From assembly GCA_014654705.1 (NCBI GenBank), contig JACVZY010000038.1, positions 1 to 54,415 on the forward strand: a DNA stretch of 54,415 nt. The letters are read 5' to 3'. The first letter of the stretch is position 1. Each line of letters begins with the position of its first letter. Position numbers and translations under genes: made by a program. This DNA comes from Ignavibacteria bacterium. GTDB lineage: Bacteria; Bacteroidota; Ignavibacteria; Kapaibacteriales; UBA4661. The notes beneath the pieces were generated by a model. It had not been told where the DNA came from and made no database searches. It saw only the letters and a list, made by a program, of their open reading frames with translations. This document shows positions 7,689-38,763 of this stretch, piece by piece.

Positions 7689-7746
7689 CGATTAAGGTAA
7701 AATTACATTGAAGACGTATCGTATCTCAAATCAAAAAAAATAAACC

Positions 7747-8733: not shown

Positions 8734-9221
8734 GAAGTATTTCGGCAATATTGGCGCTATCTGGTTGTGTAGCGTGTATGCTGTTCGCCGTATCAGCCTG
8801 CCAACAAAGCACCCGCCAAAAAGATAAAGAGATACTTGCTGCCTATCAAAAACAAGAGCAGGCTGCACATCTGACGAACAATGCCTCGTTGCTGTTGGAA
8901 ATGATGAGCGATACCGTGACGCAAGTAAAAGGGGGCGTGGTCAAGAAATTCGTGAAGGCACAAATGCTGGAACGCTTCACGCAGTATTTCGGCATGGTGG
9001 AATTTATCAAATGGGAAGACAGTGCGCCGCCTGTGTACTACCTTTCCGATGATGGCTCAATGGCAAGCGTTATCGTGCAACGCCGCGTGGAACTGCGTGT
9101 GAAAAATGATACCTCAAAAACTATTGAAAAAACAGATTTTGCATGGACGGAGCTATGGAGGAAAGAACACGGGCAGTGGCGAATGCACACAAATATTTCC
9201 ACCGACCGAAAGGGTGAGTAA
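8730..9221 (+). CDS. NTF2-like (DUF4440/SnoaL-type) lipoprotein
   Basis: A 163-residue predicted lipoprotein with a lipobox AVSAC (cysteine 24). The mature region starts with a long helix (DKEILAAYQKQEQAAHLTNN), followed by the LLLEMMSDTVTQVKGG turn and beta strands ending WTELWRKEHGQWRMHTNIST. The last is the usual W...GQWR...H signature of SnoaL/DUF4440 domains. It probably binds a small molecule, but no active site can be identified. It starts inside the stop codon of the SMP-30-like gene, so the two are coupled and may work on the same substrate. Confidence 0.7.
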   Translation: MRSISAILALSGCVACMLFAVSACQQSTRQKDKEILAAYQKQEQAAHLTNNASLLLEMMSDTVTQVKGGVVKKFVKAQMLERFTQYFGMVEFIKWEDSAPPVYYLSDDGSMASVIVQRRVELRVKNDTSKTIEKTDFAWTELWRKEHGQWRMHTNISTDRKGE

Positions 9222-9639
9222 GAAAATTTCCGCTATGTTTATGCTGCTTGCGAATAACCTTGATGACTAATTTTACTTTGGCAAGTTGGTTTTCAGGCGG
9301 CATATCGTCATATGCCAAGATGTCTGCGGCTCTGCGTTTATAGCACTCTTGAATCATTGCTAGAATGACTCCTTCTTCAGTGATTTTCAACGGTAAGATC
9401 ATGACAAAGGATATCGCGAATATCGGCGCAGAAAAGCAGTGGGTGATGGTGTTTATCAGCAATACGCTTTTTGAGAAAAACACTAATGCCATCAAGGAAA
9501 ATGCGCTTTTTAACATTTGGAGCGGGGTTTTGTGGGAAAGATTACCCGACAAAAACGCACCACTTTTCAAGCCTGGACAACCAACCGTGAGCTGTCTGGG
9601 GGCGTACAAACAAAGCTACTCACACCCGCGCCATTGTTC
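9222..9639. other. intergenic stretch with one possible small ORF
   Basis: About 420 bp between two genes that face each other. On the minus strand an open frame covers 9121-9609 and overlaps the previous gene's 3' end. Its part from an ATG at about 9364 is preceded by AAGGAG and would encode a charged peptide beginning MIQECYKRRAADILAYDDMP. Upstream in the same frame is a hydrophobic stretch that could be a membrane helix. I recognise no family and no terminator, so I leave it as a possible small or decayed gene. Confidence 0.35.
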
Positions 9640-10539
9640 CTAAAACTCCTGCACTGGGTCTTCCTTGATTTCCACGCCCAAGATTTCATGCACGTTCAGA
9701 TAGATTGTCCGTGCCATCGCATCAAGTGGAAGGTCGTTGCTGTCCAGTCCGAAGGGTTCTTCAATTTCTCCGGCAATCATCTCAATGCCCATCAGCGCGT
9801 AGGCGGCAAACATAATCGAAGGAATGGTGTAATAACCATATTTGTCCATAAGCAAAAACGGAAGCACACAGACATAAATGGTGATGAAGAGTTTGATATA
9901 AAAACCATATGAAAACGGGATGGGAGTACGCTTTATGCGCTCGCACACGCCGGCAATGTCAATGAATGCGTCGTGATGCGGCTTGACCGAGCGCAAGTGC
10001 GGGTCGGCAATGAGTTTCTGCTTGCGAAGCTGCTCAATACGGGCGAAAAGTTCAGCACCGATGATATTGGGAATGTGCATCGCATTTTGTAAACGCTCAA
10101 GTACCTTGCCCTCTAGCCCTTCAAGCTCCTCAAAGTGGATGTTATCGCGTAAGTGTCCTTTGAGCGAGTGTGCGTAGGCGGAGATATATTTGGCAAAGAA
10201 GGTGCGGTTTTCGATGTCGTCCTTTTCCAAAATACCATGCATAATCATTGCAAAACTGCGGCTGTTATTCACAAGCGAACCCCATGCTTTGCGTCCTTCC
10301 CAAAAGCGGTCGTAGGCAGTGTTTGTGCGAAAGACCAGCAAAAGACTGAGCAGTGTTCCCAAAAGCGATAGCAAGATGGTGTCAATGCGTACCGAAATCG
10401 GAAAAAAGTTTCCGACCACAAACACAAGTATGCCTGTGTAAATACCAAAAAACACAACGCGGCGCAAAAGGATTTTTATTGCCTCGCTCGTGTGAAATTC
10501 CTTGAACGACCGCAATACATGAAGCATATTTTCCCACAT
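9640..10539 (-). CDS. bestrophin-like (UPF0187/RFP-TM) anion channel
   Basis: A membrane protein of about 299 residues in the bestrophin/UPF0187 family, pentameric anion-selective (in some cases cation) channels of the inner membrane. Hydrophobic segments lie at about 23-42 and 47-66 and again near 200-240. The hallmark is the segment LVFRTNTAYDRFWEGRKAWG after the second helix, matching the family's conserved R-x-N-x-A/S-Y-x-R-W/F-x-E-G/A-R pattern. I chose the ATG at 10537-10539 because the longer upstream frame runs into the end of argS. The gap to argS is then 28 bp, consistent with a two-gene transcript. Its physiological ion is not evident. Confidence 0.85.
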   Translation of the reverse strand: MWENMLHVLRSFKEFHTSEAIKILLRRVVFFGIYTGILVFVVGNFFPISVRIDTILLSLLGTLLSLLLVFRTNTAYDRFWEGRKAWGSLVNNSRSFAMIMHGILEKDDIENRTFFAKYISAYAHSLKGHLRDNIHFEELEGLEGKVLERLQNAMHIPNIIGAELFARIEQLRKQKLIADPHLRSVKPHHDAFIDIAGVCERIKRTPIPFSYGFYIKLFITIYVCVLPFLLMDKYGYYTIPSIMFAAYALMGIEMIAGEIEEPFGLDSNDLPLDAMARTIYLNVHEILGVEIKEDPVQEF

Positions 10540-10567
10540 ACTTTTTCCCTGATAGAAATGACACAAA

Positions 10568-12235
10568 CTACATTTTTTCGGGTGCCTTGATTCCAAGCAC
10601 CGCCAGCCCATTGTTCAGAACAGTTTTTGTCGCTCTCAAAAGCGCAAACCGTGCTTGCATGAGGCTCTCTTCCTCACCTAATATACGACAATCATGGTAA
10701 AATTTATGAAATGCTGCAGCCACTTCGCGTAAATATTCTGCGATTACTTGCGGCTCCAGTGTATCTGCTGCCCGCAGAATAACTTCAGGAAAACGCAGAA
10801 CAAACTTGATAAGTTCAATTTCTGACGGGTGCAGAAGTAAAGTCGTGTCGGCTGTTGTGGCAATTTGTACACCGCGCTCTTCTGCCGTGCGCATTATAGA
10901 TGCAATGCGGGCATGAGCATACTGAAGATAAAATACCGGGTTTTTCTCGGACTGTTCCTCTGCCAAATTCAGGTCAAATTCCAAATGCGTCGAAACACCA
11001 CGCATGAGAAAGAAAAAGCGTGTTACGTCTTCGCCAAATTCTTCCAAGAGGTCGTCCAGCGTGTAACTGCGCCCTGTTCGCTTGGACATTTTCACCTGTT
11101 CGCCATCTTTCATCAGCGTTACAAATTGGTGAATCACCACGCGTACTTTTGATTTTTCTTCGCCCAGCGCCTCCACAGCCGCCATCACATCAGGAATCGT
11201 TGCAATATGGTCAGCGCCAAAAATATCAACCACGAGGTCGAATTTACGACGCGCCAGTTTGTCGTGATGATACGCAATATCCGGTAACCGATAGGTCGGC
11301 TCACCGGATGATTTGATAATCACGCGGTCATCCGTCATGCCCATCTGTGAGAGTGCAAGCCATGTTGCACCATCTTTTTCATAGACGAATCCTTTTTCGC
11401 GCAGGCGGTCAATCGTGTCCTTCACTTTGCCGTCGGTGTAGAGCGAATCCTCGTTGAAATATACGTCGTGGTGAATGTTCATACGGTTCATGGTGGCACG
11501 AATCGTGGCGAAGCACCATTCTTCGGCTGCTTTGCGACAGATAGTCAAATTATCATCATTTGCTTCCACGAGCGCCTTGCCGTGCTCGGAGGCAAGTGTT
11601 TGTGCGATTTCTTTGATGTACTCACCGTGATACAAACCTTTATCGTCCTGCGAAAAATCTACCGTACTATCGAATATCTGCAAATAGCGCGTGTGCACTG
11701 ACCGCGCGAGGTTATTCATCTGATTGCCGGCGTTGTTGAAATAGTATTCGCGTGTAACATCGTAACCGTTCCATGTGAGGATATTCGCCAGCGTGTCGCC
11801 AATGGCAGCATTACGACCGTGCCCGACGTGAAGCAGTCCTGTGGGGTTCGCGCTCACATACTCAACATTTGCCTTGATACCGCGCCCGCGCTCATTGCGC
11901 CCAATATTCTCGCCCTCAAGCAATAAATCTTGCAAACGCATTCCATAAAAACTCGGCGCAAACGTGAAATTGATAAATCCTGCTCCGGCGATGGAAATAT
12001 CGGTTATCACGGTGTTGTTGGTGCTGCTTTTGAGAATTTCAACAAGGTTGACGGCAAGTTCGCGCGGATTTTTTTTGAGTGCTTTCGAGAGTGTCATAGC
12101 GACATTCGTTGAAAGGTCACCGTGTTCCACATTGCGCGGTACTTCGAGCGTGATTTCCGTAGGTGCATCAATGCCGTACGTAAGAGAAAGTGTTTTCAGA
12201 GCGTCGTGTAAAATAGGCGTAAGATATGATTTCAT
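10568..12235 (-). CDS. argS: arginyl-tRNA synthetase
   Basis: Class I arginyl-tRNA synthetase, charging tRNA-Arg with arginine in the cytosol. The chosen start gives 555 residues, a normal length. The N-terminal Arg-tRNA-synthetase domain (about 1-85) contains VEHGDLSTNVAM. The catalytic domain has the HIGH-type motif HVGH at 136-139 within ANPTGLLHVGHGR, the GADHI segment near 340, and the KMSKS-type loop as KMSKR (382-386). A DALR anticodon-binding domain follows (YLQYAHARIASIMR ... VLGIKAPEKM). An in-frame extension upstream of 12235 is poorly conserved and low in quality, so the ATG at MKSYLTP is preferred. The bestrophin gene follows on the same strand. Confidence 0.97.
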   Translation of the reverse strand: MKSYLTPILHDALKTLSLTYGIDAPTEITLEVPRNVEHGDLSTNVAMTLSKALKKNPRELAVNLVEILKSSTNNTVITDISIAGAGFINFTFAPSFYGMRLQDLLLEGENIGRNERGRGIKANVEYVSANPTGLLHVGHGRNAAIGDTLANILTWNGYDVTREYYFNNAGNQMNNLARSVHTRYLQIFDSTVDFSQDDKGLYHGEYIKEIAQTLASEHGKALVEANDDNLTICRKAAEEWCFATIRATMNRMNIHHDVYFNEDSLYTDGKVKDTIDRLREKGFVYEKDGATWLALSQMGMTDDRVIIKSSGEPTYRLPDIAYHHDKLARRKFDLVVDIFGADHIATIPDVMAAVEALGEEKSKVRVVIHQFVTLMKDGEQVKMSKRTGRSYTLDDLLEEFGEDVTRFFFLMRGVSTHLEFDLNLAEEQSEKNPVFYLQYAHARIASIMRTAEERGVQIATTADTTLLLHPSEIELIKFVLRFPEVILRAADTLEPQVIAEYLREVAAAFHKFYHDCRILGEEESLMQARFALLRATKTVLNNGLAVLGIKAPEKM

Positions 12236-12312
12236 AGTACTTAGAGCGTGTAAAATGTCGGTGAGAATAGAAAAGAAAATTTGTAATGATGCGAAAAAAA
12301 CGTACAAAAAAA

Positions 12313-12345
12313 GCGTATAGCCCGCTAGGGAAGCAGGCTATACGC
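12313..12345 (-). terminator. Rho-independent terminator for the TPR/thioredoxin-fold gene
   Basis: GCGTATAGCCCGC (12313-12325) pairs with GCAGGCTATACGC (12333-12345), a 13-bp stem with one mismatch and a 7-nt loop. On the minus strand the stem is followed by a run of T residues (complement of 12306-12312). It sits about 14 bp after the stop at 12359 and before argS. Confidence 0.85.
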
Positions 12346-12358
12346 AAAAGAAAACTAC

Positions 12359-14332
12359 TTATTGATTCAAATAAAAGCGTTCACTGCCGAGCAGAAGCAT
12401 CGTTTCTTCGATTTCTTGGGTCAGTTTTAATCCATCGGTGAAGCCGCTTCCTTTGAATTGAATCCGCCCGTTTTTGTCGAGATAAAAGCGCATTGGTAAG
12501 CCCGTTACGCCATATTTCTGCGCCATGACGTTATTGTCATCCACTAAAATCTGAAAATAGAGCGCAGAATTCCTCGCCATATAGTCCTTAACGAGAGTAA
12601 ACTGGTCTTTACCTTTATCTTCCCACGCATCGATGACAACGATATTAAAATCTCCCGCTTTGGCGTATTTGTTATACAGTACATTCACGAAAGGCATAGC
12701 TTTCAGGCAAGGCTCAGCCCATGACGACCAAAACATAATCATCGTTGGCTTACCTTTGAAGGAAGATAGTGTCATTGGTGTTCGGTCAGTGGTGAAAACC
12801 GTACCGTCAATCAATTCACGGTCGAGACGCTGCTTAATTTGTTTGTATGCTTGCAGTGCAGAAGCGGAGTCTTTCAAACGCTGGAGTTCTGAGACGTAGA
12901 GAATCGAATCAACTCTTTTCCCACGTACCGAATCCATTGCTGTTTTGTGCCATTGTAGCAGTACATTGTCGCCGCCAGTCGTGATAATGCCTTGTGCAGC
13001 AATCGCCAGCGACTCGGCAAAGCGTTTTTTCTCAAACAAAATACCGGCTGCTTGCGAAAAAGCAGGTGCAGGAAGTTCGCCCTTCGTGGTTTCTAATGCG
13101 CTTGTGAAGGTGGAAAGCGCATCATCAGGGCGTTTTAATTCCACATAGATTGCACTCAGCGTGTTATAGACATCGCCAAGCGTGGCTGTGGTATTCAAAT
13201 TCCATTCAATTTCGGCAATATGTGAAGGACGCTGATAGAGAGGCTGGCGCTTTGCGAGTTCAAGTGCTTTCTGTGCATAGCGCAAGCCGCGTTCCTGGCT
13301 CGTGTCAGTACGGCACCAGTATTTTGCAAGTTCATTGTATGCTAAGGGCGAAACATTTGGAAGCGTGTCCAGCCACTTCGCGGCATCGGCGAGGCGTCGT
13401 ACTTGTGCAAACGTAGCGACAGCAGCACCTTGCATCATTGGAGCCATCGGTGATTCTTGGAATTTCGATGCAAATTCCACCGCACGCACCAAAAACCAAT
13501 CCGGCACGACTTGAACTTGAAGTATCTGCATTGCGTTGTCTTCTGCAATTTTGCTTTTAGGGAAACGCTTGATATATGCGTCTTCCAGTGCTTTTGCTTG
13601 ATTTGCCATACCAAGAGCGTTCAAGCCACGAATCACGGCGCGGGTGTCGTTTTCGCGCGTGGTGTCGAAAGGCTGGGAAACGTAGCTTTGCAAACTGCGA
13701 CGATACGTCTCCTCCGGTATGTCCTTCACATCATATGCCAATGCTACCTCAGCGACCTTTGCCGAAAGATTATTCGGGTAAAAGCGTAGTTCCTCCCGCA
13801 TAAGCTGGAGTGCTTTTGGAAAATCCGACAAGCGACTGCACTCGGTTGGTAAACTTCCTAAAAAAGTGATTGCGTTTCTGAGCAACGAACCTTGCACAGG
13901 TTTTGAGCCATCGCCGGTAATGCGTGTGTCCCAGTAGTTGCCATTATTGTCGTCGTATCGTGTGCCGTTGAACAATTTCATCATCCAAAATACATCGGTT
14001 TGTTTTACAGCTACCTCGCCACCAAAACTCCCATCCACGCGACGGGTGAGTTTGACGTAGTCTGCCACAGGCTCACCGGAAATTTCTCTAAAACGATAGA
14101 CAAGAAGGTAGATATTCTCAGCATTACGCCAAGCGGAATCCGGTTTATACGTGAACGACGCACGCTCGCCAAGACGCGGCATTGCAGGACTGATGCTGAG
14201 TTCGCCACCCAGTGCTGTCAGCGAAAAAAGCATCGGCAAGAGCATCACAAGCCATACAAGAAAAAACAGTCGTGCAGAGCGTGACGAAAGAGAAGTCTGA
14301 TTTTGTGCGGTGTTTACGCCACAGATGTTCAT
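12359..14332 (-). CDS. TPR protein with C-terminal thioredoxin-like (TlpA/redoxin-type) domain
   Basis: A 657-residue exported protein. The N-terminus has a hydrophobic signal or anchor (about 23-43). A beta-rich region (45-130) follows, then helical TPR-like repeats (about 160-500). A thioredoxin-fold domain spans 515-650: FKGKPTMIMFWSSWAEPC, VIDAWEDKGKDQF, ILVDDNN and the cis-proline loop GVTGLP (P613). TlpA-type proteins normally carry WCxPC and reduce periplasmic disulfides. Here the first cysteine is replaced: W538-A-E-P-C542. Classical dithiol exchange is therefore unlikely, though a monothiol activity or pure binding role remains possible. A terminator follows the gene. The start ATG at 14330-14332 is supported by the signal sequence only. 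Confidence 0.8.
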   Translation of the reverse strand: MNICGVNTAQNQTSLSSRSARLFFLVWLVMLLPMLFSLTALGGELSISPAMPRLGERASFTYKPDSAWRNAENIYLLVYRFREISGEPVADYVKLTRRVDGSFGGEVAVKQTDVFWMMKLFNGTRYDDNNGNYWDTRITGDGSKPVQGSLLRNAITFLGSLPTECSRLSDFPKALQLMREELRFYPNNLSAKVAEVALAYDVKDIPEETYRRSLQSYVSQPFDTTRENDTRAVIRGLNALGMANQAKALEDAYIKRFPKSKIAEDNAMQILQVQVVPDWFLVRAVEFASKFQESPMAPMMQGAAVATFAQVRRLADAAKWLDTLPNVSPLAYNELAKYWCRTDTSQERGLRYAQKALELAKRQPLYQRPSHIAEIEWNLNTTATLGDVYNTLSAIYVELKRPDDALSTFTSALETTKGELPAPAFSQAAGILFEKKRFAESLAIAAQGIITTGGDNVLLQWHKTAMDSVRGKRVDSILYVSELQRLKDSASALQAYKQIKQRLDRELIDGTVFTTDRTPMTLSSFKGKPTMIMFWSSWAEPCLKAMPFVNVLYNKYAKAGDFNIVVIDAWEDKGKDQFTLVKDYMARNSALYFQILVDDNNVMAQKYGVTGLPMRFYLDKNGRIQFKGSGFTDGLKLTQEIEETMLLLGSERFYLNQ

Positions 14333-14481
14333 AGTACAACTGCCAGATAGTGAAACGAATGGATTAGAGAAAGTACAAAGGTACGGATTTTTCAGAATAT
14401 TTCCCGAAGGAACGAAAAAGTTGTAAATTTGGAAGCGTTAAAGCCTTGTATCATCACCACAAAAACAAACAACGAGCGTGT

Positions 14482-15999
14482 ATGCGTTGGCGAACCTCTC
14501 TTTTCACCAAACATCTGACGAGTTTTGGGCTTGTCCTCATGCTTATCGCCGTGCTGGCGGCTGTTGCCTACCGAAGTTTTTCACAGTTTAGTGCGTTGAC
14601 AGATGAGATTGTAAGTGGTCCGATAGCAACAAAAAATCACGCCCTCCTCGCCGAGTCCGAACTCCGCCGCGCCACAGCTCTGGAGCAACGCTTCCTTATC
14701 CATTTAGACACCAAAGACGTACAAATGTTTAAGGCGGCTATTGATACAGCAAAATCTCACGTCTGGATCATTTTAACATCAGACAGCCTCAGTTTAGACA
14801 CAAACACCATACGGATTAAACGCAAAGCAGCAGAACTTGAACGCAGTATAGACCAGTATTTTCAGGGGTTTAGTGATATCGTGTGGGAAATATCTCTTCG
14901 GACTCAAAAGCACGAGATGAGTTTCGTTGACATTGTGCAAACAGACACCACTATTCAGCAAACGTTCAAGAGCTATTCTGCTAAAGCCGAGCGTTGCGGG
15001 GTCTTAGCCAAGGAAATTTGCGAAATTTCCGACCGCAAACTTTCTGCTGTTTCCCTCCAAATGCACCATACACGAGATCACGCAATCAAGATATTTTTGC
15101 TCATTACTGCATTCACGCTGCTTGCGGGGCTGCTGATTTCATTCTTGTTTTCGCGGATGCTCACGCGCACAATCTTACTTCTGCACGACGCAGCAGGTCA
15201 GGTTGCCGGAGGACTGCGGACGGTGCGCCTTGATATTCGTACCGGAGACGAGTTGGAGGATTTAGCAGCGTCCTTCAATACGATGGTAGAGAATCTCGAT
15301 GTGATGTTCAAAGAAATTGAAGTAATGTTTGTAGAGTTGGAGGACAAAAGTCTTGAACTCGCAACAGCCGGCGAGCAAAATAAAGCCCTCCTCCTAAACG
15401 TTCTTCCGGCAAGCATTGCAGAACGCCTCAAATCAGGCGAGACACTGATAGCTGATGAACACCGCGCAGCGACTATTCTCTTTGCCGATATTATCGGCTT
15501 CACTGAGCTTGCCGCCGTTCACTCCGCCGTCGAAATTGTGCAAATGCTCAATATGCTTTTTTCCATATTTGATATGCTGTCGGAAGATTGTGGTGTGGAA
15601 AAAATCAAGACCATCGGCGACAATTACATGGCTGCGTGCGGTATTCCCACTGCCCGGGAGAACCACATAGAAGCTGTTGCTGATATGGCGCTGGCGATGA
15701 TACCGGAAATCAAAGGTTTTGCAGCGCTCTCCGGTGTGCCTCTCGAACTTCGTATTGGCGTTCACACCGGAAACGTCGTGGCGGGAGTTATCGGGCAGAA
15801 AAAATTTATTTACGACCTCTGGGGCGATACCGTAAACACAGCCAGTCGCATGGAATCAAGCGGAGAAGCGGGTCGTATTCACGTGAGCGAAGAAGTCTAT
15901 CTGGCGCTCCGCCACTCCCACACATTCGAGGAGCGTGGCGAAATGGAAATTAAAGGTAAAGGGCTCATGCGTACCTATTTTCTGACGGGCAAACGATGA
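14482..15999 (+). CDS. membrane adenylate cyclase (class III) with HAMP domain
   Basis: Predicted to convert ATP to cAMP at the inner membrane. Layout: transmembrane helix about 12-31, extracytoplasmic four-helix-type sensor (32-200), second helix about 202-224, HAMP (225-278), a coiled linker ending LLLNVLPASIAERLKSGE, and a class III catalytic domain (328-503). All key residues are visible: metal aspartates D336 (ILFADIIGFT) and D380 (TIGDNYM), adenine-selecting K376 and D445 (YDLWG), and N452 and R456 (DTVNTASRME) for the transition state. The K/D pair argues for adenylate rather than guanylate cyclase. I chose the ATG at 14482; a TTG at 14446 would add 12 poorly supported residues. Its stop overlaps the next start by four bases. 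Confidence 0.9.
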   Translation: MRWRTSLFTKHLTSFGLVLMLIAVLAAVAYRSFSQFSALTDEIVSGPIATKNHALLAESELRRATALEQRFLIHLDTKDVQMFKAAIDTAKSHVWIILTSDSLSLDTNTIRIKRKAAELERSIDQYFQGFSDIVWEISLRTQKHEMSFVDIVQTDTTIQQTFKSYSAKAERCGVLAKEICEISDRKLSAVSLQMHHTRDHAIKIFLLITAFTLLAGLLISFLFSRMLTRTILLLHDAAGQVAGGLRTVRLDIRTGDELEDLAASFNTMVENLDVMFKEIEVMFVELEDKSLELATAGEQNKALLLNVLPASIAERLKSGETLIADEHRAATILFADIIGFTELAAVHSAVEIVQMLNMLFSIFDMLSEDCGVEKIKTIGDNYMAACGIPTARENHIEAVADMALAMIPEIKGFAALSGVPLELRIGVHTGNVVAGVIGQKKFIYDLWGDTVNTASRMESSGEAGRIHVSEEVYLALRHSHTFEERGEMEIKGKGLMRTYFLTGKR

Positions 16000-16616
16000 A
16001 TATTGCTCACTACCCGATAAGCCTCATTCTCCTTGCCTCCGGCGCATCCAGCCGTATGAAAGCAAGTCTTGGCAAAGACAAAATGCAGTTGACACTCCCC
16101 GATGACGAGAGAACACTGCTCCAAACGACGCTTGAAATCTATCGTTCTTGCCCTTTTGCAGAAATTCTCGTTATTGTGCGCCAGTATGGACGTGAAGAGC
16201 CGACAGGCAAAACTCGATTTATTGTGAATGATAAAGCAGAACAGGGTATGGCTTCGTCGTTGGCGCTGGGTGTGAAGAGCGCCTCGCCGAATGTAAGCGG
16301 ATATTTGATTGCACTTGCTGATATGCCACTTGTCCAAATAGCAAGCATAGAAGCGCTCTGCAACGAATTTCTTTTGTGCAGGAGTAATGAAGCAATTTGC
16401 GTTCCCACTTTTCGTGGACAACGCGGTAATCCGGTGCTTTTTGGCAGCGCCTACAAAAACGAGTTACTGAGCCTTTTCGGTGATGTCGGCGCAAAGTCAT
16501 TGCTGCGGCAGTATGCAGAACGGGTGTGCGAGGTAGAGACCGATGATGAAGGAATTTTGCTTGATATTGATACGGCGCAAGATTGGCAGCATTTTTTGCA
16601 AAAAAAAGCCGCCTGA
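15996..16616 (+). CDS. MocA/MobA-like nucleotidyltransferase
   Basis: A 206-residue NTP-transferase of the MobA-like family, closest in pattern to molybdenum-cofactor cytidylyltransferase (MocA), which transfers CMP to molybdopterin. Visible motifs: LILLASGASSRM (nucleotide-binding loop, residues about 8-19), EQGMASSLALG, ALADMPLV (metal-binding DMP), RGQRGNPVLF, GDVGAKSLL and DIDTAQDW at the end. The lysine after the first loop is displaced (SSRMKASLGKDKMQ), so the exact substrate is uncertain. It begins in the ATGA that ends the adenylate cyclase gene, an unusual coupling. A shared terminator follows. An orphan molybdate permease lies 12.5 kb downstream. Confidence 0.8.
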   Translation: MNIAHYPISLILLASGASSRMKASLGKDKMQLTLPDDERTLLQTTLEIYRSCPFAEILVIVRQYGREEPTGKTRFIVNDKAEQGMASSLALGVKSASPNVSGYLIALADMPLVQIASIEALCNEFLLCRSNEAICVPTFRGQRGNPVLFGSAYKNELLSLFGDVGAKSLLRQYAERVCEVETDDEGILLDIDTAQDWQHFLQKKAA

Positions 16617-16643
16617 CAGCATAAAAAAATAGTCGGCGGCTTT
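16606..16643. terminator. bidirectional terminator between convergent genes
   Basis: AAGCCGCC-T-GAC (16606-16617) pairs with GTCGGCGGCTT (16632-16642) around a 14-nt loop rich in A. An A-run precedes it (16600-16607) and a T-run follows it (to 16646). It can stop transcripts of the MocA-like gene (+), whose TGA lies inside the stem, and of the DUF4249 gene (-), which ends at 16665. Confidence 0.85.
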
Positions 16644-16664
16644 TTTCGAGGATAGATGAAATTC

Positions 16665-17774
16665 TTACCACTGAATTTGAATTGGTCGTTCTATGCCGGA
16701 GGTTCCTGCAAAGATACCAATTCCATCACCTGAAACATTCCAGACAGGATTTGTACCACCAGCAGAAAATGGCGTTGTTCCAGCACCAAAGCGTGCTGAC
16801 GACGAGCTGTTCAACCAATCAAAGTAGGATGTTTCAGTTATTACCAATGCGTAGTACCACTTTGCACGGCGGAACTGTTCCCGTATTTCTTCAAGTGAGC
16901 CTCGATATGTTACGACAATCTGACCACCGATAAAGTTAGTATTAAATTCGAGCCTTCGTTCAACAGCTACACGCATAGTAGCTGTTCGCTCGCTCACTCC
17001 TTGCGGTACAATAATAGACGATTGAGCATTATTTCCGCCACTAGATCTGCCGATTGCAGTGACGAAAGTATCTATTCTCCCTGTCGTTCGATTTGTAACA
17101 GTGTCACGAGCATACATTATGAGATCATGTGCCAGACCTGGGCGTAAGCGAATAGGTGCTTCCAGATTGATGAGAATACGCGGAGTATTGGCAGTGAGAG
17201 GAATAAATTCGCCATTCGGTCCTCTCGTCCCGCCAAATTGGAACGAAACCGTATCAATCGTTACCTTCGTCTTATACTCTCCTAGAAACGATGATTCTAC
17301 AGTCGGTATAGTAGCTGTTGCCTGAGCAGTCTTGCCTTGCCAGCGCACTGTAATTTGATATGTTTTTCCTGCCTGTACGCGCAGTCCGGGAACGGAATAA
17401 ATCGGAAGAAACTTTGCCGGAGGTGGAGTGCCATTCCCTACGACTGGAGCGCCATAATAACTTTGACGTAGCGTATCGAAGCGAACTTCCGGCGTATAGA
17501 TTTGGTTATCAACCTTGATACGAACTTCCGCATCTTGCAAATACGCTTTTTCTGGTGTGGTTTCCTCCAACGGCGGCTGTGTGCGTGTAATGAAAATATT
17601 GTCAATTGGCTTTCCTGCTTCCAGCAGACCTTCAATAACAATCCGTTCCTCGTGTGGCAATGTGATATTGGTAACAACCTGCTCGCAACTTGTAATTACT
17701 GTACCAGCAGCTAATAACAAAGCTAGGGCAGCGGAACATAAATATCGTGATGTGATTTTGAGAGAATAATACAT
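16665..17774 (-). CDS. DUF4249 lipoprotein, partner of TonB receptor
   Basis: A 370-residue predicted lipoprotein (signal ending VITSC, cysteine 30) of the DUF4249 family. Family features are the opening helix-strand EQVVTNITLPHEERIVIEGLL, the TRTQPPLE segment and the RVKAGKTYQITVRW-like segment (here LRVQAGKTYQITVRWQGK). DUF4249 proteins are nearly always encoded next to TonB-dependent receptors in Bacteroidota and are thought to be outer-membrane accessory proteins, analogous to SusD-type partners, but their ligands are unknown. Here it follows the receptor gene by 41 bp on the same strand, consistent with one transcript. The ATG at 17772-17774 is chosen because it starts directly at the lipoprotein signal. 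Confidence 0.85.
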   Translation of the reverse strand: MYYSLKITSRYLCSAALALLLAAGTVITSCEQVVTNITLPHEERIVIEGLLEAGKPIDNIFITRTQPPLEETTPEKAYLQDAEVRIKVDNQIYTPEVRFDTLRQSYYGAPVVGNGTPPPAKFLPIYSVPGLRVQAGKTYQITVRWQGKTAQATATIPTVESSFLGEYKTKVTIDTVSFQFGGTRGPNGEFIPLTANTPRILINLEAPIRLRPGLAHDLIMYARDTVTNRTTGRIDTFVTAIGRSSGGNNAQSSIIVPQGVSERTATMRVAVERRLEFNTNFIGGQIVVTYRGSLEEIREQFRRAKWYYALVITETSYFDWLNSSSSARFGAGTTPFSAGGTNPVWNVSGDGIGIFAGTSGIERPIQIQW

Positions 17775-32834: not shown

Positions 32835-33425
32835 TTAAACGCTTGCAGTGGCAGATTCTTGCTCATGCATCAGACGCAGCCACTGGCGATAACCAAGCCA
32901 TGCTAAGACCGTGAAGACGACATAGAGCGCTGAGGTGAGCCACAATGATTTGGAAATAAACATTCCGACATAGAGCACATCAGCAGCCAGCCACACAAGC
33001 CAACTTTCACAGTATTTCTGCGCCTGCATCCAAACGGCGCAAAGGCTCATGCTTGTCAACAACGCATCCATTTCCGGCAGTGCGGCATCGGTGTAGAGCC
33101 GAAGAATGAATGCCACTCCAAATGCAAAAACGAGCGTAGCGATAGCGGCAAAAGGCAGTAGTATTGTTGGCAGACGCGAGATACGGCGCTCTGTGTGGGA
33201 TTCGCCACCATGAAGCCACTCATACCATCCGTAAGCGTTCATGCCGCAGAACACGAGTTGCAAAGCCATGTCCGCGTAGAGTTTCTCACGAAAAAACACC
33301 GCCCCATACAGCAAAACACTCGCAATGCCCCACGCCCAGCACCACACATTATTGCGTACGGTCAGCCACACCGAAATAATACCGGTAACGGCACCAAGCG
33401 CTTCAATCCATGTGATGTGAGGCAT
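32835..33425 (-). CDS. pnuC: nicotinamide riboside/mononucleotide transporter
   Basis: A 196-residue inner-membrane PnuC transporter, which brings in nicotinamide riboside for NAD synthesis. Seven hydrophobic helices are expected and can be placed. Family features include WIEALGAVTGIISVWLTVRNN at the start, WCWAWGIASVLLYG, DMALQLVFCGMNAYGWYEW (the central W/Y/N-rich helix) and the late WLVWLAADVLYVGMF. Length is normal once the ATG at 33423-33425 is used; an upstream frame adds ten non-conserved residues. It is divergent from the DndD-like gene, with 291 bp between. No transcriptional link to NAD biosynthesis genes is visible here. Confidence 0.92.
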   Translation of the reverse strand: MPHITWIEALGAVTGIISVWLTVRNNVWCWAWGIASVLLYGAVFFREKLYADMALQLVFCGMNAYGWYEWLHGGESHTERRISRLPTILLPFAAIATLVFAFGVAFILRLYTDAALPEMDALLTSMSLCAVWMQAQKYCESWLVWLAADVLYVGMFISKSLWLTSALYVVFTVLAWLGYRQWLRLMHEQESATASV

Positions 33426-33642
33426 ACTGAATCTTTGACTACAAAAGAGCGACAAGACGTTTAACTCAATTTTCTTTGCAAGACAGCTACAAAATTACGA
33501 AAAACGTGATGATTTTTGTTGGAAAACTGCGATTTTTCCGCTATCCTTAACATCTTTTAACCAAGCGTATTAACCGCTACAAGCTCAAAAGTACCTATTT
33601 ATGAGGCTTCCAGCACTCTTCTTTCTTGGACTATTCCCCACA

Positions 33643-33678
33643 TTTCGTTCCCAGCGCTAGTTTCGTTCTCAGCGCTAA
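33643..33678. repeat. tandem 18-bp direct repeat upstream of the DndD-like gene
   Basis: Two adjacent 18-bp units (33643-33660 and 33661-33678), each beginning TTTCGTTC and ending in the palindromic core AGCGCTA, agree at 16 of 18 positions. They end 38 bp before the ATG of the DndD-like gene, where an operator or promoter would sit. Symmetric AGCGCT cores one and a half to two helical turns apart suggest cooperative binding by a dimeric protein. Confidence 0.6.
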
Positions 33679-33716
33679 GAGAACCAACCCCTACTTCACG
33701 TTCACTTGCCGTTATC

Positions 33717-35774
33717 ATGCTCATCACCCGCATCAAAGCTGACCATTTTAAGACGTATCATGCACTTGACCTCGACCTGAGTGTGAGCGAGGGGAAACCG
33801 CTTGTTCTTATCGGCGGCGCGAATGGCGGCGGCAAAACCACCCTTTTTCAAGCGGTCTGCGGTGCACTGTACGGGTTGAAAATCACCACCGAGCAGCAAT
33901 TTCACGAACTGTACAACACGGGTGATAATGCCCGTGCAGGCTCCGGTATGGCATCGGAACAAGGTATTCGGCACATCACGCTTGAAATTAACTTTGTCGG
34001 ACATCTTTTGGGCGAAGAGAAGCCGCACTTGCTCTCGCGGCGCTATGAAGTTTCTGCAAACGGCAAAAAATCTGAGGTAGTGGAGTATGTCAATGCAAAC
34101 TTTGGCGGAATGAAATATGCTTTCAATAGTGCCATGCCGCAACGCGAGCGCATGAAACATCAAACCGAAATAGCGAAAATTATCAAGGCGAATCTGCCCG
34201 AAGAACTCAGCCGCTACTTTCTTTTTGATGCGATGGAGTCCGGTGCACTCGTGCGTGAGGACGAGATAAACCGCGTTATTCGAGAAAATATCGAAAGCGT
34301 GATGGGCTTTGGGAAATATATTCAGCTTGGGCGTGTTGCCGAAACGCTTGCCAAGCGCACCAATGCTGAAAGGCTCAAACTTGAAAATGAAAAGCATGAA
34401 TACATGAGGCTTCTGGGCGAAAAACGGCAATTAGAAGCTCGTGCCGCCACGCTGGAAATAGAACTTGCGGAGTCATTTGCTTTTCGTCGCAAGAACAAAA
34501 CACTTTACGAAGCCCTCCAACACGACCTCGAAGCCGGGTTCGCTCTTACTAGGACGATAGAGCAAACGAAAAAAGAAATTGAAACAATTCTGAGCCGTGA
34601 ACGCGGCTACCACAGCGCCGTGCAAGGTTTTGCTCAGAACTTTGAGCAGCACGTTATTTTGCCGAATCTTGCCCACGCGCTTCGCAGCGAACTTGTGCTT
34701 ATTATTTCCACCAAAAACGCCGTTGAAAAGCAAGGTGAGGAAACTATCAAACGCGAAACCGTTGAGCGAATTGTCCGCGAGGCGCTGCGGTACTTGCGGG
34801 ATAAAACGTTGATAGAGGAGAATGTTGCTCAATCGCTGGAGGCTTCCTTAGTGGAGTATCTCGTTTCGGCACGAATGTCGGCGGCACAAGCGGATTTCTA
34901 CGAATTTTTGAATCAGCAGGAAGTTCGCGCTTTGGAGAACCTTTTGCACGGCGCACACACGAACCCTTTTGCACAGATTCTTGAACAAAAAAGCCAGCTT
35001 TTGAGCCAATTAGAAAGACTTCCGGGGTTGGAACGAAGTCTCGAAGAGTGGCGTAGCCATGCGGCAAGTAAGGATTTTTCGCTTATTCGTGTTTTTGAGC
35101 GGAACGAAAACACGATTGAACTGCACGAAGAAGAGCAAAAGCGCATCACGGCTGACCTTGCGGCAATCGAAACACGCCTTCATGCGTTTGATATTCAAAT
35201 GGACAATGCCGCCGACCCGAAATATGACCTTCTCCAAAAACTCAAACCTTTTTTCCTCGAAACCGGTGCGACGCTTTTGCAAGCAAAGAAGCGGCAAATC
35301 GAAATGACGATGATGCAAGACCTGAACATCAATCTTGTGCCTTACCGCAGTGTGATTGACCGCGTGGAGCTTTCGGATTCTCTCGCAGACCTGAGTTTTC
35401 GGATGTATCACACAAGCGGCAATGAAATTGCACTTAATCAGCTCAACACCGCATCAAAGCAGATTGTTGTGCAATGCCTCCTGAAAGCGCTGCATCAATT
35501 TGGCGAATACGACCCGCCGGTGATGATAGATACGGTAATGGGTGCGCTTGATGAAGAAAGTCGCCAGACGGTACTTGAAAACTACTTCCCTGAGCTTTCG
35601 CATCAGACAATTCTTCTCAGTTCCGACAGCGAAATTCGCCCCAATGGAGATTTCGATACTCTCGTTCCGTTTATTTCTCGTGCCTACACGCTCAAACGCG
35701 ACAAGGAGCGCCAATGTACGGAGATTGAGGAGGGGTATTTTGGAAAAAGTCTCAGCATTATTCGGACACAATAA
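33717..35774 (+). CDS. DndD-like SMC/RecF-type ATPase
   Basis: A 685-residue SMC-family ATPase resembling DndD, the ATPase of DNA phosphorothioation systems. The head begins MLITRIKADHFKTYHALDLD and has a Walker A, G34-A-N-G-G-G-K-T41. A DndD-typical FLFDAME segment (about 175-182) follows. The coiled-coil arms span about 215-480. The C-terminal head has a signature region QLNTASKQIVVQCLLKALHQ (from 575) and Walker B/D-loop MIDTVMGALDEESRQ (D605), then HQTILLSSDSEI. The usual signature S-x-G-E is altered to N577-T-A-S580. It is followed 62 bp later by a HerA-type gene, with no terminator between. No dndA, dndB or dndC is present in the window. No ribosome-binding site is evident; the ATG is fixed by the conserved N-terminus. 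Confidence 0.8.
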   Translation: MLITRIKADHFKTYHALDLDLSVSEGKPLVLIGGANGGGKTTLFQAVCGALYGLKITTEQQFHELYNTGDNARAGSGMASEQGIRHITLEINFVGHLLGEEKPHLLSRRYEVSANGKKSEVVEYVNANFGGMKYAFNSAMPQRERMKHQTEIAKIIKANLPEELSRYFLFDAMESGALVREDEINRVIRENIESVMGFGKYIQLGRVAETLAKRTNAERLKLENEKHEYMRLLGEKRQLEARAATLEIELAESFAFRRKNKTLYEALQHDLEAGFALTRTIEQTKKEIETILSRERGYHSAVQGFAQNFEQHVILPNLAHALRSELVLIISTKNAVEKQGEETIKRETVERIVREALRYLRDKTLIEENVAQSLEASLVEYLVSARMSAAQADFYEFLNQQEVRALENLLHGAHTNPFAQILEQKSQLLSQLERLPGLERSLEEWRSHAASKDFSLIRVFERNENTIELHEEEQKRITADLAAIETRLHAFDIQMDNAADPKYDLLQKLKPFFLETGATLLQAKKRQIEMTMMQDLNINLVPYRSVIDRVELSDSLADLSFRMYHTSGNEIALNQLNTASKQIVVQCLLKALHQFGEYDPPVMIDTVMGALDEESRQTVLENYFPELSHQTILLSSDSEIRPNGDFDTLVPFISRAYTLKRDKERQCTEIEEGYFGKSLSIIRTQ

Positions 35775-35836
35775 AACGAACTTTTGTACACCACTTTTAT
35801 CTTGCTTTCAGATACTACACTACATATTCTGCTTTT

Positions 35837-37444
35837 ATGTCCCCTCATAGCCTTGAATTTACTGCGCTTCGTCAAGCAGAGTCTCTCCCTACGCTCCTTG
35901 CAAAGCTCAAAGACCGCATTGAATCACTGCTCAACCTCAGCGATTATCACGGCGAACTAAAGCCCGTGCTCGTTAGTACGAATCTCGTGCAGCGCTTGTG
36001 CCTCGCTACGGGCTTGGGGTGTGAAGAAAAGCGTAACCGTGCGGAACTTGATGCAATCAACCTTTCGGACACAACGTATATTCACGATACGGTTTTTACG
36101 CGGATGAATCTTTTGGCGATGTGGTCGGCGCTGGTGAAGATGCGATATAATGCGCTCCCGCTTGATTGGGCAAGTACCACCACCCTCAGCGCTATCGTCA
36201 ATGCCGAGATGCTGCGCGGTGCGGAGCTTCTTTTAGAAGATGATGCTTTGTTATCAGCGCTTGCTTCTACGGCTCTTGAAACAAGCAACCGTGTATCAGA
36301 ACAGCTGCCGATTTTGAACCTGCATATCGGAACCTTTGCGGACGGCAATGCTCAAGCAGCCTCATTAAACCTGAACGGGCGCGATATTCCGAACACCCAA
36401 ATCCTCATCGCCGGCACGACTGGTTCCGGAAAGACCAATCTTCTGGCTGTCCTGCTTCAGCAAATTCGTAGCGCGTCGGTCGAAACGCCTTTTCCTGTCA
36501 ATTTTTTGTTGTTCGATTACAAAGGTGAATTTTCCGACCCCGCCAATGCCGCATGGTTGCAGCACTTCGAGGTGCAGCGCCGTTGCATCATTGACCCGCT
36601 CCACGAGGCGTTGCCCTTTAATCCGTTCAAAGATTTTTCCCAAAAGCAAAATGCTCGCAGCGAAATCAATCTTTACGCAACCGAACTCGCCGAAGCACTA
36701 TTGGCGCTAGACCGTGCCACCATTAGTGCCAATATGGCAAACAGACTCACCGAAGCAGTGATTCAGGCATATGGACGCACCAACAATGCTCCCGTCAGCT
36801 TTGAGCGCATTTACGACGAGTACACCGCGCTCCAAGACCCGCGCGAACAAAGCAAATCGGATTCGATAAAATCTATGCTTTCGCAGCTCATTCGGTCGAA
36901 CCTCTTTGCGGCAAGCGATAGTGCCGATTTGGTGCGGTCGAGCTTTATCATCAAAATGGATACGTTCCCCAAAGACGGCATCATTGCAAAAGCGATGGTT
37001 TATTTCACGATTGCCAAGCTCAATGCGCTCTACGAAACGCTGCCTGTGCAAACAATGAACGACAAACACGTGGAATTACGCCACTTTACTATCATTGACG
37101 AAGCGCACTATATGCTGGACTTTGACAACAAACCGCTTCGCAATCTCATTGCCACCGGACGCAACAAGGGATTGAGCATTATTCTGGCAACGCAAAGTAT
37201 GGAGAGTTTTCGGTCGGATTATTTTGATTTTTACGCCAACGCCCAATATCCACTTATCATGCGTCAGCAAACCATGAACGACCGCGTTTTGCGAGATTTA
37301 TTTGGTCTGTCGGGGCAGGAATTTACAAAGCTGAAAGAGGCAATCAGCAATTTGAAAAAAGGCGAAGTGATTTTGCGCACAGGCTCTTCCACTCTCGCTT
37401 CGTCGCGAAAATTCAGGAAAATTGCGGTAACGCATTTGGTATAG
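35837..37444 (+). CDS. HerA/FtsK-like ATPase, possibly with DndE-like N-terminal domain
   Basis: A 535-residue P-loop motor ATPase of the HerA/DUF87 group, hexameric DNA translocases. The ATPase domain spans about 165-535. Walker A: G193-T-T-G-S-G-K-T200. It also has LLFDYKGEF (about 219-227), Walker B HFTIIDEAHYML (D421, E422), sensor ATQS in GLSIILATQSMESF, and a C-terminal FGLSGQEFTKLKEAI helix. The first 130 residues are helical; STNLVQRLCLATGL followed by NLSDTTYIHDT and EMLRGAELL has the order of conserved segments of DndE. I therefore suspect a DndE-HerA fusion, known in some Dnd loci, but that part is weak. It lies 62 bp after the DndD-like gene, and a strong hairpin follows its stop. 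Confidence 0.75.
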   Translation: MSPHSLEFTALRQAESLPTLLAKLKDRIESLLNLSDYHGELKPVLVSTNLVQRLCLATGLGCEEKRNRAELDAINLSDTTYIHDTVFTRMNLLAMWSALVKMRYNALPLDWASTTTLSAIVNAEMLRGAELLLEDDALLSALASTALETSNRVSEQLPILNLHIGTFADGNAQAASLNLNGRDIPNTQILIAGTTGSGKTNLLAVLLQQIRSASVETPFPVNFLLFDYKGEFSDPANAAWLQHFEVQRRCIIDPLHEALPFNPFKDFSQKQNARSEINLYATELAEALLALDRATISANMANRLTEAVIQAYGRTNNAPVSFERIYDEYTALQDPREQSKSDSIKSMLSQLIRSNLFAASDSADLVRSSFIIKMDTFPKDGIIAKAMVYFTIAKLNALYETLPVQTMNDKHVELRHFTIIDEAHYMLDFDNKPLRNLIATGRNKGLSIILATQSMESFRSDYFDFYANAQYPLIMRQQTMNDRVLRDLFGLSGQEFTKLKEAISNLKKGEVILRTGSSTLASSRKFRKIAVTHLV

Positions 37445-37469: not shown

Positions 37470-37499
37470 TTCCCTCGCCGATGGCTATCGGTGAGGGAA
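37470..37499. terminator. terminator-like hairpin after the HerA-type gene
   Basis: TTCCCTCGCCGAT (37470-37482) pairs with ATCGGTGAGGGAA (37487-37499), a 13-bp stem with a single G-U pair and a 4-nt loop, starting 26 bp after the stop codon. There is no T-run, so termination would be weak or Rho-assisted. It marks the end of the two-gene module. Confidence 0.5.
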
Positions 37500-37620
37500 G
37501 GGGTTGAAACCTCTTGGCGCAAAGAGCGCTTCAGCATTTGTGTTTACGATAGTCGCATTTATGCTTCCAACTGAATTCACATAGAATCGTATTTTCTAAT
37601 CATTGTCTTTCAATTTTTCC

Positions 37621-38763
37621 ATGAACCTCCGCTCAAAACTCCCGAATGTCGGGACAACAATTTTTACCGTCATGTCCCAGATGGCGCATGATTACAAAGC
37701 AATCAATCTTGCACAGGGCTTCCCCAATTTTCCGCCTTCCGCCGAACTCTTAGATGCCGCCACAAACGCCATGCAGCGCGGCTTGAATCAATACGCACCG
37801 ATGGCGGGCTATGCACCGCTTCGGGAGCGGATTGCAGAAAAAATTGAGCATTGCTACCAAAGGCGCGTCAATCCTGACACGGAACTTACCGTTACGCCCG
37901 GCGGGACGGCAGCGCTTTTTGCAGCAATGATGGCTATTGTCCATGCGGGCGATGAGGTGATTGTGCTAGAGCCTTGTTACGACTCGTATTTGCCGACTCT
38001 CGAACTCTGCGGAGCATCTGTGAAGCGTGTGCCGATGAGCTTTCCTGATTATTCGATTGATTGGGATGCTGTGCAGCAAGCTGTCTCTCCCAAAACCAGA
38101 ATGCTCGTGCTGAATACGCCACATAATCCCACAGGGAGTATACTACGCAAAATAGATATGGAGCGGCTTGCGACGATTGTCAGCAATACCGACATCATCA
38201 TTCTGAGCGACGAGGTCTATGAGCACATCACCTTCGACGGTGAGCGGCATGAGAGCGTTTTGCGGTATCCTGAGCTTGCCGAACGCTCATTTGTGGTGTC
38301 GTCCTTTGGTAAAACCTTCCACGTTACGGGCTGGAAAACTGGCTACTGCGTGGCTCCGGCGGCTCTCACAAGCGAATTTCGCAAGGTGTATCAATTTATG
38401 AATTTCGCTTCCTTCACCCCAGCGCAAGTAGCATTTGCAGAGATTCTCGCCAATAAATCGCACTACGAAACGCTTTCTCGGTTCTATCAATCAAAGCGGG
38501 ACTACTTCCGTAAACAAATGGAAGGTTCGCGCTTTGAAATGCTGCCTTCCCATGGCTCGTACTTCCAACTTGCTCGCTATTCCGCCATTTCCGACATGAA
38601 GGACAGCGATTTTGCGGTGTGGCTCACAAAAACGCACGGCGTGGCGGTGATTCCTGTTTCGGCGTTTTATGCAGACGGAACGGACAATCATGTTATCCGC
38701 TTTTGCTTTGCGAAGACCGAAGAAACACTGGAGCTTGCTGCGGCGGCACTTAGGAAAGTGTAA
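37621..38763 (+). CDS. PLP-dependent aminotransferase, methionine/kynurenine aminotransferase type
   Basis: A 380-residue class I/II aminotransferase, cytosolic, closest in pattern to methionine aminotransferase YbdL and kynurenine/glutamine transaminases. Typical segments: INLAQGFPNFPP (substrate-binding loop, about 30-41), NQYAPMAGYAPLRERIA, VTPGGTAALFAA, NTPHNPTGSI, LSDEVYEH, and the PLP lysine K231 in SSFGKTFHVTGWKTGY. The C-terminal arginine is in NHVIRFCFAKTEETL. It may serve methionine salvage or transamination of methionine to its keto acid. The ATG at 37621 is preferred over a TTG at 37603. The hairpin after the preceding gene argues that it is a separate transcription unit. Confidence 0.9.
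   Translation: MNLRSKLPNVGTTIFTVMSQMAHDYKAINLAQGFPNFPPSAELLDAATNAMQRGLNQYAPMAGYAPLRERIAEKIEHCYQRRVNPDTELTVTPGGTAALFAAMMAIVHAGDEVIVLEPCYDSYLPTLELCGASVKRVPMSFPDYSIDWDAVQQAVSPKTRMLVLNTPHNPTGSILRKIDMERLATIVSNTDIIILSDEVYEHITFDGERHESVLRYPELAERSFVVSSFGKTFHVTGWKTGYCVAPAALTSEFRKVYQFMNFASFTPAQVAFAEILANKSHYETLSRFYQSKRDYFRKQMEGSRFEMLPSHGSYFQLARYSAISDMKDSDFAVWLTKTHGVAVIPVSAFYADGTDNHVIRFCFAKTEETLELAAAALRKV

What the first reader, a model, noticed from the sequence alone, without database searches (positions are those of the whole stretch)
33643..37444. Stand-alone DndD plus HerA-type (possibly DndE-fused) ATPase module without dndA/B/C
Seen: an SMC-type ATPase with DndD features, followed after 62 bp by a HerA motor ATPase whose N-terminus has the conserved-segment order of DndE. 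Known: Dnd phosphorothioation needs DndC (PAPS-reductase-like) and a cysteine desulfurase. Neither is here: upstream is divergent pnuC, downstream an aminotransferase behind a hairpin. Inference: this may be a self-contained SMC-HerA defence or DNA-repair module derived from Dnd machinery but not depositing sulfur, or half of a split Dnd locus.
Basis: partly seen in the sequence, partly recalled or inferred. Interest (0 to 1): 0.78.

Follow-up and report, generated by a model that had tools for sequence, protein, structure and literature searches.

The report
Scattered Dnd-derived DNA motor, no modification genes
Two neighbouring genes make a DNA-clamping ATPase and a DNA-reading motor taken from a bacterial defence operon; in this genus the matching DNA-cutting gene and nearly always the DNA-marking gene are gone, yet these two and a third small partner gene are kept at scattered places, which suggests the machine now works on its own.

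Summary
A DndD-like ABC ATPase (33717-35774) is followed after 62 bp by a DndE-HerA fusion (35837-37444). The DndE half, invisible to Pfam's DndE model, is a DndE fold by prediction (Z 11.5, rmsd 2.3 over 106 residues to 4lrv). The genome has no detectable dndC or dndB. Of 54 related loci outside the genus with at least 6.9 kb upstream, 54 have DndD and 50 have four partners: type III methylase, ResIII helicase, small Sp-DndD protein and DndD, in operon order before DndE-HerA. In the window's genus (8 genomes) Sp, DndD and DndE-HerA occur together in the same 5 genomes, without the operon-type helicase and (4 of 5) without the operon-type methylase; Sp is unlinked in 5 of 5, DndD and HerA in 3 of 5. 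dN/dS points to purifying selection; two sister species lack all three. So this is neither a self-contained pair nor a split Dnd locus, but part of a three-protein DNA-scanning and pumping core kept without its modification and restriction arms. DndD-DndE dyads and DndE-HerA fusions are in print; the dispersed triad is the new part. Its function is inferred, not shown.

The parts
33717..35774 (+). DndD-like ABC ATPase with coiled coil, 685 aa; Walker A GGANGGGKT, degenerate ABC signature LNQLNTASKQ, Walker B VMIDTVMGALDE
   Evidence: motif survey
35837..37444 (+). DndE-HerA fusion ATPase, 535 aa
35837..36295 (+). DndE-like double ribbon-helix-helix domain (about residues 5-140, plus the following helix to 153)
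   Evidence: AlphaFold2 model; Foldseek; VIA-align
36320..37441 (+). HerA/FtsK-type motor domain (Walker A GTTGSGKT, Walker B HFTIIDEAH)
35775..35836 (.). 62-bp gap between the two genes; in sister genome G001 an Uma2-family ORF lies in the corresponding gap
37472..37497 (.). hairpin between HerA and the aminotransferase gene, no T run
32835..33455 (-). divergent pnuC neighbour (context, not part of the machine)
37603..38763 (+). PLP-dependent (methionine-type) aminotransferase neighbour (context)

Best explanation
The two window genes are two thirds of a three-protein DNA machine (Sp-DndD + DndD + DndE-HerA) that descends from a five-gene, PbeABCD-like / type III restriction-modification-like defence operon of Bacteroidota, and that this genus keeps without sulfur genes, without the operon's helicase and mostly without its methylase. 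How it most likely works: a DndD dimer clamps DNA between its ABC heads and coiled coils; the DndE half (double RHH) ties it to a preferred DNA site and to the DndD coiled coil; the fused HerA ring pumps or tracks along duplex DNA; the small Sp protein regulates or bridges. With no mark-writing and no nuclease partner found, I think it now acts on DNA by itself as a vertically inherited, domesticated accessory factor (DNA clearance, segregation or repair of the host chromosome). Shown: the genes, domains by sequence or predicted fold, motifs, distribution, loss pattern, low dN/dS. Inferred: complex formation, clamping, pumping, and the housekeeping role.
For: Family and domains. Parent operon: 76 of 80 fetched loci carry DndD upstream; of 55 with at least 6.9 kb upstream, DndD 54, Sp 52, ResIII helicase 53, type III methylase 51, all four 50, and the one without any is genus member G005. 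Triad in genus: DndD-like and HerA in the same 5 of 8 genomes, Sp in the same 5. Unlinked: in G007 DndD, HerA and Sp lie more than 33 kb from contig ends on three contigs; also on different contigs in G002 and G005; DndD-HerA next to each other only in G000 and, with one ORF between, G001. Joint absence: sisters G005+/G006- and G002+/G004- on the rpoB tree. Operon-type helicase in none of the five triad genomes (weak partial hits of 56 and 51 bits in G000 and G002 against 903 in G006). DndC only in G006 and G007. dN/dS 0.05-0.21 for the whole genes where dS is finite. Sp is 89.5% identical G000-G007 against 75.2% for queG, 78.5% Rieske, 93.2% rpoB. Genus sequences form one clade for DndD and HerA. 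Nine of ten flanking proteins have Pfam matches and none is a defence family at E<=1e-5 (PADLOC not run on them).
Against: Present in only 5 of 8 genomes, so not essential. Dispersal does not by itself prove a change of function. G002 keeps a methylase of the operon type (607 aa) and G006 a methylase-helicase pair without the triad, so parts still circulate. G004 is only 86% complete. All genomes are fragmented assemblies (90-680 contigs). dS is mostly near saturation, so dN/dS is only a rough sign. No experiment.
Confidence: 0.5

Rival explanations
1. The triad is still an anti-phage / anti-plasmid system that needs no mark and no nuclease: it loads on invading DNA and stalls its replication, as PbeBCD does weakly without PbeA.
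For: Ancestry is a defence-type operon. Xiong et al. 2019 (PMC6459918, passages): cells with pbeA deleted still had low-level resistance, and viral DNA showed no sign of cleavage. Patchy presence in the genus.
Against: The same passages say PbeABCD needed phosphorothioation, whose DndC is missing here; genes are scattered, each gene family forms one genus clade, and the ten flanking proteins are not defence genes.
Confidence: 0.32
2. The five-gene system is still whole but its genes are dispersed; methylase and helicase were missed because the assemblies are incomplete.
For: G006 has methylase and helicase near a contig end (10,055-base contig) and G002 a methylase near a contig end.
Against: No operon-type helicase in G000, G001, G005, G007 (97-99% complete; best 56 bits, G000) and no full-length operon-type methylase in those four (best 1.5e-26 in G000, 8.7e-15 in G001, 6.1e-4 in G005, 1.4e-57 in G007, all partial; the G007 one sits beside a different 968-aa helicase-like ORF, by eye).
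Confidence: 0.07
3. Half of a split Dnd phosphorothioation locus with dndBC in trans.
For: G007 has a separate complete-looking dnd operon and G006 a dndC.
Against: G007's dnd operon has its own DndD and DndE-HerA; the window genome has no dndC or dndB found; its two PF01507 hits read as CysH and CysD (assignment by eye); G005 has no PF01507 match.
Confidence: 0.03
4. Decaying remnants of a lost defence operon.
For: Partner genes lost, linkage broken, and sister species without any of the three.
Against: DndD and Sp ORFs are open in five species and HerA in four (the G001 HerA is cut by the contig end, so its rest is unseen); motifs kept; dN/dS 0.05-0.21; Sp highly conserved.
Confidence: 0.06

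Closest known systems
DndD-DndE dyads without PT genes, and DndE-HerA/FtsK fusions next to a DndD-related ABC ATPase (Rakesh, Aravind, Krishnan 2024, PMC10853773; abstract, sections 11, 13, 14, 16, 17, 22 and passages seen)
   Same: Same domains and pairing: DndD-type ABC ATPase plus DndE fused to a HerA/FtsK (their clade 3; clade placement of ours not tested)
   Different: [quoted passage not shown] here the two are unlinked in 3 of 5 species and go with a third unlinked gene, without the operon's helicase
PbeABCD (Xiong 2019, PMC6459918; passages)
   Same: Same logic and order: helicase (PbeA), small protein (PbeB, 66 aa), ABC ATPase (PbeC), DndE (PbeD, as reread in PMC10853773)
   Different: Our DndD family has no CxC in the coiled coil (regex hit in 1 of 71 family rows); DndE is fused to HerA; the helicase is absent with the triad in the genus. 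Homology of Sp and PbeB was not tested
Five-gene Bacteroidota operon MTase-ResIII-Sp-DndD-DndE-HerA (assembled here; may be in Krishnan 2020, not held)
   Same: Closest relatives of the genus proteins outside the genus (HerA 49-58%, full-length DndD about 38-49% identity in BLAST; Sp 41-54%)
   Different: One operon; carries methylase and helicase
DndFGH (DptFGH)
   Same: HerA motor domain of DptH/DndH is related
   Different: The window protein lacks the long N-terminal DndH part; DndF and DndG were not searched for

Membership tests
DndD (TIGR03185 equivalog) | Full-length match above the curated cut-off of 245.85 bits | tested here: not met
   163.2 bits, residues 1-675 to profile 1-650: a DndD-clade relative, not an equivalog
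DndD clade / coiled-coil ABC ATPase | Walker A, Walker B and ABC signature around a coiled coil | tested here: inconclusive
   Walker A and B present; signature region reads LN[TA]ASKQ in 52 of 71 family rows (9 rows no regex match, 10 other forms), against LSAGEKE in the canonical DndD of G007; no structure of DndD was predicted
CxC clade (PbeC) | CxC Zn-hook at coiled-coil apex | tested here: not met
   C-x-C in the middle region in 1 of 71 family rows (regex)
DndE | Two tandem ribbon-helix-helix units with long H2b and C-terminal helix | tested here: met
   AF2 model E11-14, H17-32, H48-61, E76-82, H85-91, H93-103, H114-133, H137-153; 4lrv Z 11.5. A predicted, not a solved, fold
DndE | Match to Pfam PF08870 | tested here: not met
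   No hit at E<=1; the canonical DndE-HerA of G007 does match (6.5e-11)
Dnd phosphorothioation system | DndC and DndB encoded in the genome | tested here: not met
   No TIGR03183 or PF14072 in G000
Dnd phosphorothioation system | DndA encoded in the genome | not tested
   not searched; housekeeping desulfurases can stand in (PMC10853773)
Dnd phosphorothioation system | Phosphorothioate in genomic DNA | not testable with these tools
   needs mass spectrometry
PbeABCD-like / type III R-M-like five-gene operon | ResIII helicase and methylase linked to the Sp-DndD-DndE core | tested here: not met
   Absent beside the pair; no operon-type helicase in the five triad genomes
Sp-DndD (PF20306) | Match above the gathering score of 27.2 bits | tested here: not met
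   24.7 bits for the G000 protein (E 2.6e-5), 15.9 for G005; G000 Sp aligns along its length with seven operon Sp proteins at 41-54% identity
HerA (NF040937 and anti-phage HerA models NF042943, NF042944) | Equivalog cut-off | tested here: not met
   18.1 of 800 bits; 13.0 of 800; 12.4 of 850

The most novel reading that the evidence does not exclude
A restriction-modification-type defence operon has been taken apart in one bacterial genus: its marking and cutting arms were discarded while its three-part DNA-scanning motor (Sp, DndD, DndE-HerA) was broken into unlinked genes and turned into a vertically inherited chromosomal machine, a bacterial SMC-like complex with its own sequence-reading domain and its own translocase.
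Probability: 0.4. Interest if true: 0.8.

Novelty: new variant of a known kind. Interest (0 to 1): 0.56.

Why it matters
It isolates the DndD-DndE-HerA core from the modification and restriction partners it normally travels with, in a natural setting. Which step of Dnd/Pbe action the core performs by itself is open, because in the studied systems it acts together with a mark-writer; the species here offer it alone. It also suggests that defence machines can be domesticated as host DNA factors, and gives a three-gene set whose joint gains and losses can be followed although the genes are not neighbours.

Tried and rejected
Tried without result: sequence-level proof of DndE failed (Pfam, hhalign); the predicted structure gave the answer. 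Fold of the small protein (model, mean pLDDT 80.3, from the Flavihumibacter copy L042) gave no usable PDB match (best E 5.7). Promoter- and terminator-like sites at chance level. tRNA and Rfam: nothing in the window. Plasmid collection: no match to the Bacteroides nordii HerA at 1e-20. Phage collection: one unannotated human-faecal record, MT835906, 51% identity to the window HerA; not pursued. Weak hit G055 (3.8e-4) taken as unrelated. First idea dropped: that the genus lost conserved DNA-contact residues of DndE. Position 81 (Arg in 42 of 59 others) is not Arg in the genus, but nor in the Hymenobacter relatives; only position 119 (K/R in 58 of 59 others; A, A, E, K in G000, G002, G007, G005) stays suggestive. 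Considered and rejected: island-borne pair (flanking families); assembly artefact (long contigs in G007). The HerA tree is a quick tree (careful search unfinished) and does not repeat the Hymenobacter sister group of the DndD tree. Literature not seen: Krishnan 2020 (NAR, doi 10.1093/nar/gkaa726, title and doi recalled) is not held and may already draw the five-gene operon; so no claim is made that the operon is new. Searches for prior reports of the dispersed triad: (listings only, capped); none of the listed papers named it.
Full report
What is there. The window is contig C38 of an unnamed 5.72-Mb genome (G000, 99.2% complete). The first gene, 33717-35774, encodes a 685-aa DndD-clade ATPase: TIGR03185 163 bits over its whole length but below the 246-bit equivalog cut-off, PADLOC DndD 1.1e-53 and PbeC 9e-45. 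The second, 35837-37444, encodes a 535-aa protein with a HerA/FtsK motor related to DndH/DptH.

DndE fusion. Sequence tools do not prove it (no PF08870 at E<=1; hhalign probability 1.5%). An AlphaFold2 model of residues 1-179 built on 63 sequences shows strand-helix-helix twice, a long second H2 and a C-terminal helix, and its best solved match is DndE (4lrv Z 11.5, rmsd 2.3 over 106 residues; 5wtu 11.2; 7x4e 11.0), with F-plasmid relaxosome chains next at 7.5 and below (probably TraY, which PMC10853773 likens to DndE). Foldseek's own best E-value is 9.7e-3. I take the fusion as established at the level of predicted fold. In a sample of 198 genomes of the phylum, PF08870 itself was found in 5, not in G000.

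Parent system. A scan of the 84,980-species collection with the genus HerA alignment, through two peptide patterns, confirmed 165 loci and kept the best 80; 72 bear Bacteroidota titles, 5 Ignavibacteria or Kapaibacterium, 1 each Opitutales, Alphaproteobacteria and an unnamed bacterium. DndD homologues lie upstream in 76 of 80; the other four are three genus members and one locus cut 110 bases before HerA. Clustering and tblastn give the operon methylase - ResIII helicase - small protein - DndD - DndE-HerA: of 55 loci with at least 6.9 kb upstream, 54 have DndD, 52 Sp, 53 helicase, 51 methylase, 50 all four; the five incomplete ones are L035 (genus member G005, none of the four), L060 (no methylase in tblastn, though one search shows a piece at the contig end), L070, L084 (broken DndD) and L091. 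Some of the counted genes have broken frames (for example DndD of L083, L092 and L098). For the Flavihumibacter copy: methylase = PADLOC MTase_III 2.9e-79; helicase = PF04851 2.3e-16 and REase_III 1.7e-13; small protein = PF20306 Sp-DndD 7.1e-10. The layout parallels PbeA-PbeB-PbeC-PbeD as reinterpreted in PMC10853773 (section 16).

The genus. Eight genomes were searched. HerA: G000, G002, G005, G007, plus G001, where a 3,506-base contig ends 57 residues in. Outside the genus, 123 genomes of the order gave one further match at 1e-30, G257, which is the operon locus L038; of 61 relatives only one non-genus genome had a weak hit, 3.8e-4. DndD orthologue: the same five (other hits cover at most profile residues 1-118 in other ORFs, apart from the canonical DndD of G007). 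Sp: the same five (G000, G001, G002, G007 at about 1e-56, G005 1.6e-30; best in G003 and G004 0.5 and 0.9, none in G006). DndD and HerA are neighbours only in G000 (62 bp) and G001 (an Uma2-family ORF between). In G007 DndD sits on C61 in the pnuC-hydrolase-queG-Rieske-modB neighbourhood of the window with two cobalamin-type genes inserted (by eye), HerA on C57, Sp on C44. Operon-type helicase: G006 only, 903 bits; G000 and G002 have partial hits of 56 and 51 bits. Operon-type methylase: G006 (634 bits) and G002 (324 and 291 bits for two pieces) only; other genomes have weaker partial hits. Those two methylase genes share 94.7% of 809 and 90.0% of 561 bases, so that gene seems to move by itself. 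In G006 the contig goes on for 204 bases past the helicase, and no Sp was found in that genome.

Evolution. An rpoB tree (8 rows, G002 and G003 partial) pairs G005 with G006 and G002 with G004, both fully supported; one member of each pair has all three genes and the other none, so at least two joint losses of unlinked genes if they were inherited from the genus ancestor (G004 is only 86% complete; its absence is weaker evidence). The genus forms one clade in the DndD tree (SH-aLRT 100, with two Hymenobacter as sisters at 93) and in the HerA tree (99, quick tree, sister unresolved). Nei-Gojobori dN/dS is 0.07-0.21 for DndD, 0.10-0.16 for HerA, 0.05-0.14 for Sp, and 0.22-0.27 for the N-terminal 160 residues of HerA, where dS is finite (2 of 29 comparisons had infinite dS; most dS values exceed 1, so these are rough). 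Sp is more conserved between G000 and G007 (89.5%) than queG (75.2%), Rieske (78.5%) and pnuC (62.2%), less than rpoB (93.2%); HerA 77.0%, DndD 61.5%. The DndE half of HerA changes faster than the whole (52-60% identity against 77-80% among G000, G002, G007).

No phosphorothioation genes. dndC only in G006 and G007, dndB only in G007, where both lie in a canonical operon with its own DndD and a DndE-HerA that does match PF08870. G000's PF01507 proteins look like CysH and CysD (by eye). G005, with the triad, has no PF01507 match. dndA was not searched.

Mechanism. From the literature: DndD heads are predicted to dimerise like Rad50 and DndD to bind DndE through its coiled coil 2 (predictions, PMC12193691, passages); DndD/CxC-DndE is proposed to be a DNA-scanning core (PMC10853773); PbeBCD without PbeA leaves weak resistance, with no sign of DNA cleavage, but PbeABCD needs PT (PMC6459918, passages). 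From this I infer a clamp (DndD) plus site reader and pump (DndE-HerA) with a small regulator (Sp), acting on DNA without mark or cut. A host role is favoured by scattering, single genus clades and low dN/dS; a defence role by ancestry and patchiness. Neither is shown. The unusual ABC signature (LN[TA]ASKQ in 52 of 71 rows) is shared with operon members and is no sign of decay.

Novelty. DndDE dyads and DndE-HerA fusions are published (PMC10853773); the five-gene operon may be (Krishnan 2020 not available). I found no report of the unlinked triad in the listings; open-access papers only.

Noticed in passing
L012 (G007:C83), 9223-16012: A canonical dnd operon in the same genus: dndC, dndD, a GIY-YIG-like gene (by eye), dndB, DndE-HerA fusion; beside genes that look like rpoA and ribosomal proteins (by eye).
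   Followed up: partly
L031 (G006:C87), 15011-17345: dndC followed by an ORF that looks like an HNH-type gene (by eye), with no dndD orthologue found in that genome; same rpoA-side place as the dnd operon of G007.
   Followed up: no
L129 (G006:C38) 5431-9851 and L144 (G002:C618) 5220-7043: Operon-type methylase (with helicase in G006) without an adjacent DndD-DndE core; 90-95% DNA identity in two blocks between species whose rpoB proteins are 88% identical.
   Followed up: partly
L011 2400-3330 (G001:C14): Uma2-family ORF between DndD and HerA, preceded by an inverted repeat that reads like a small mobile element (by eye).
   Followed up: no
L040, L041, L046, L052, L055, L056, L060, L067, L070, L074-L076, L079, L083, L088, L091, L092: Optional extra genes (clusters c5, c6, c14, c23/c24) inside or just after the five-gene operon, as if it had cargo slots.
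   Followed up: no
L068 and L069 (Pontibacter arcticus): Two copies of the operon with identical DndD and HerA proteins about 74 kb apart on one contig.
   Followed up: no
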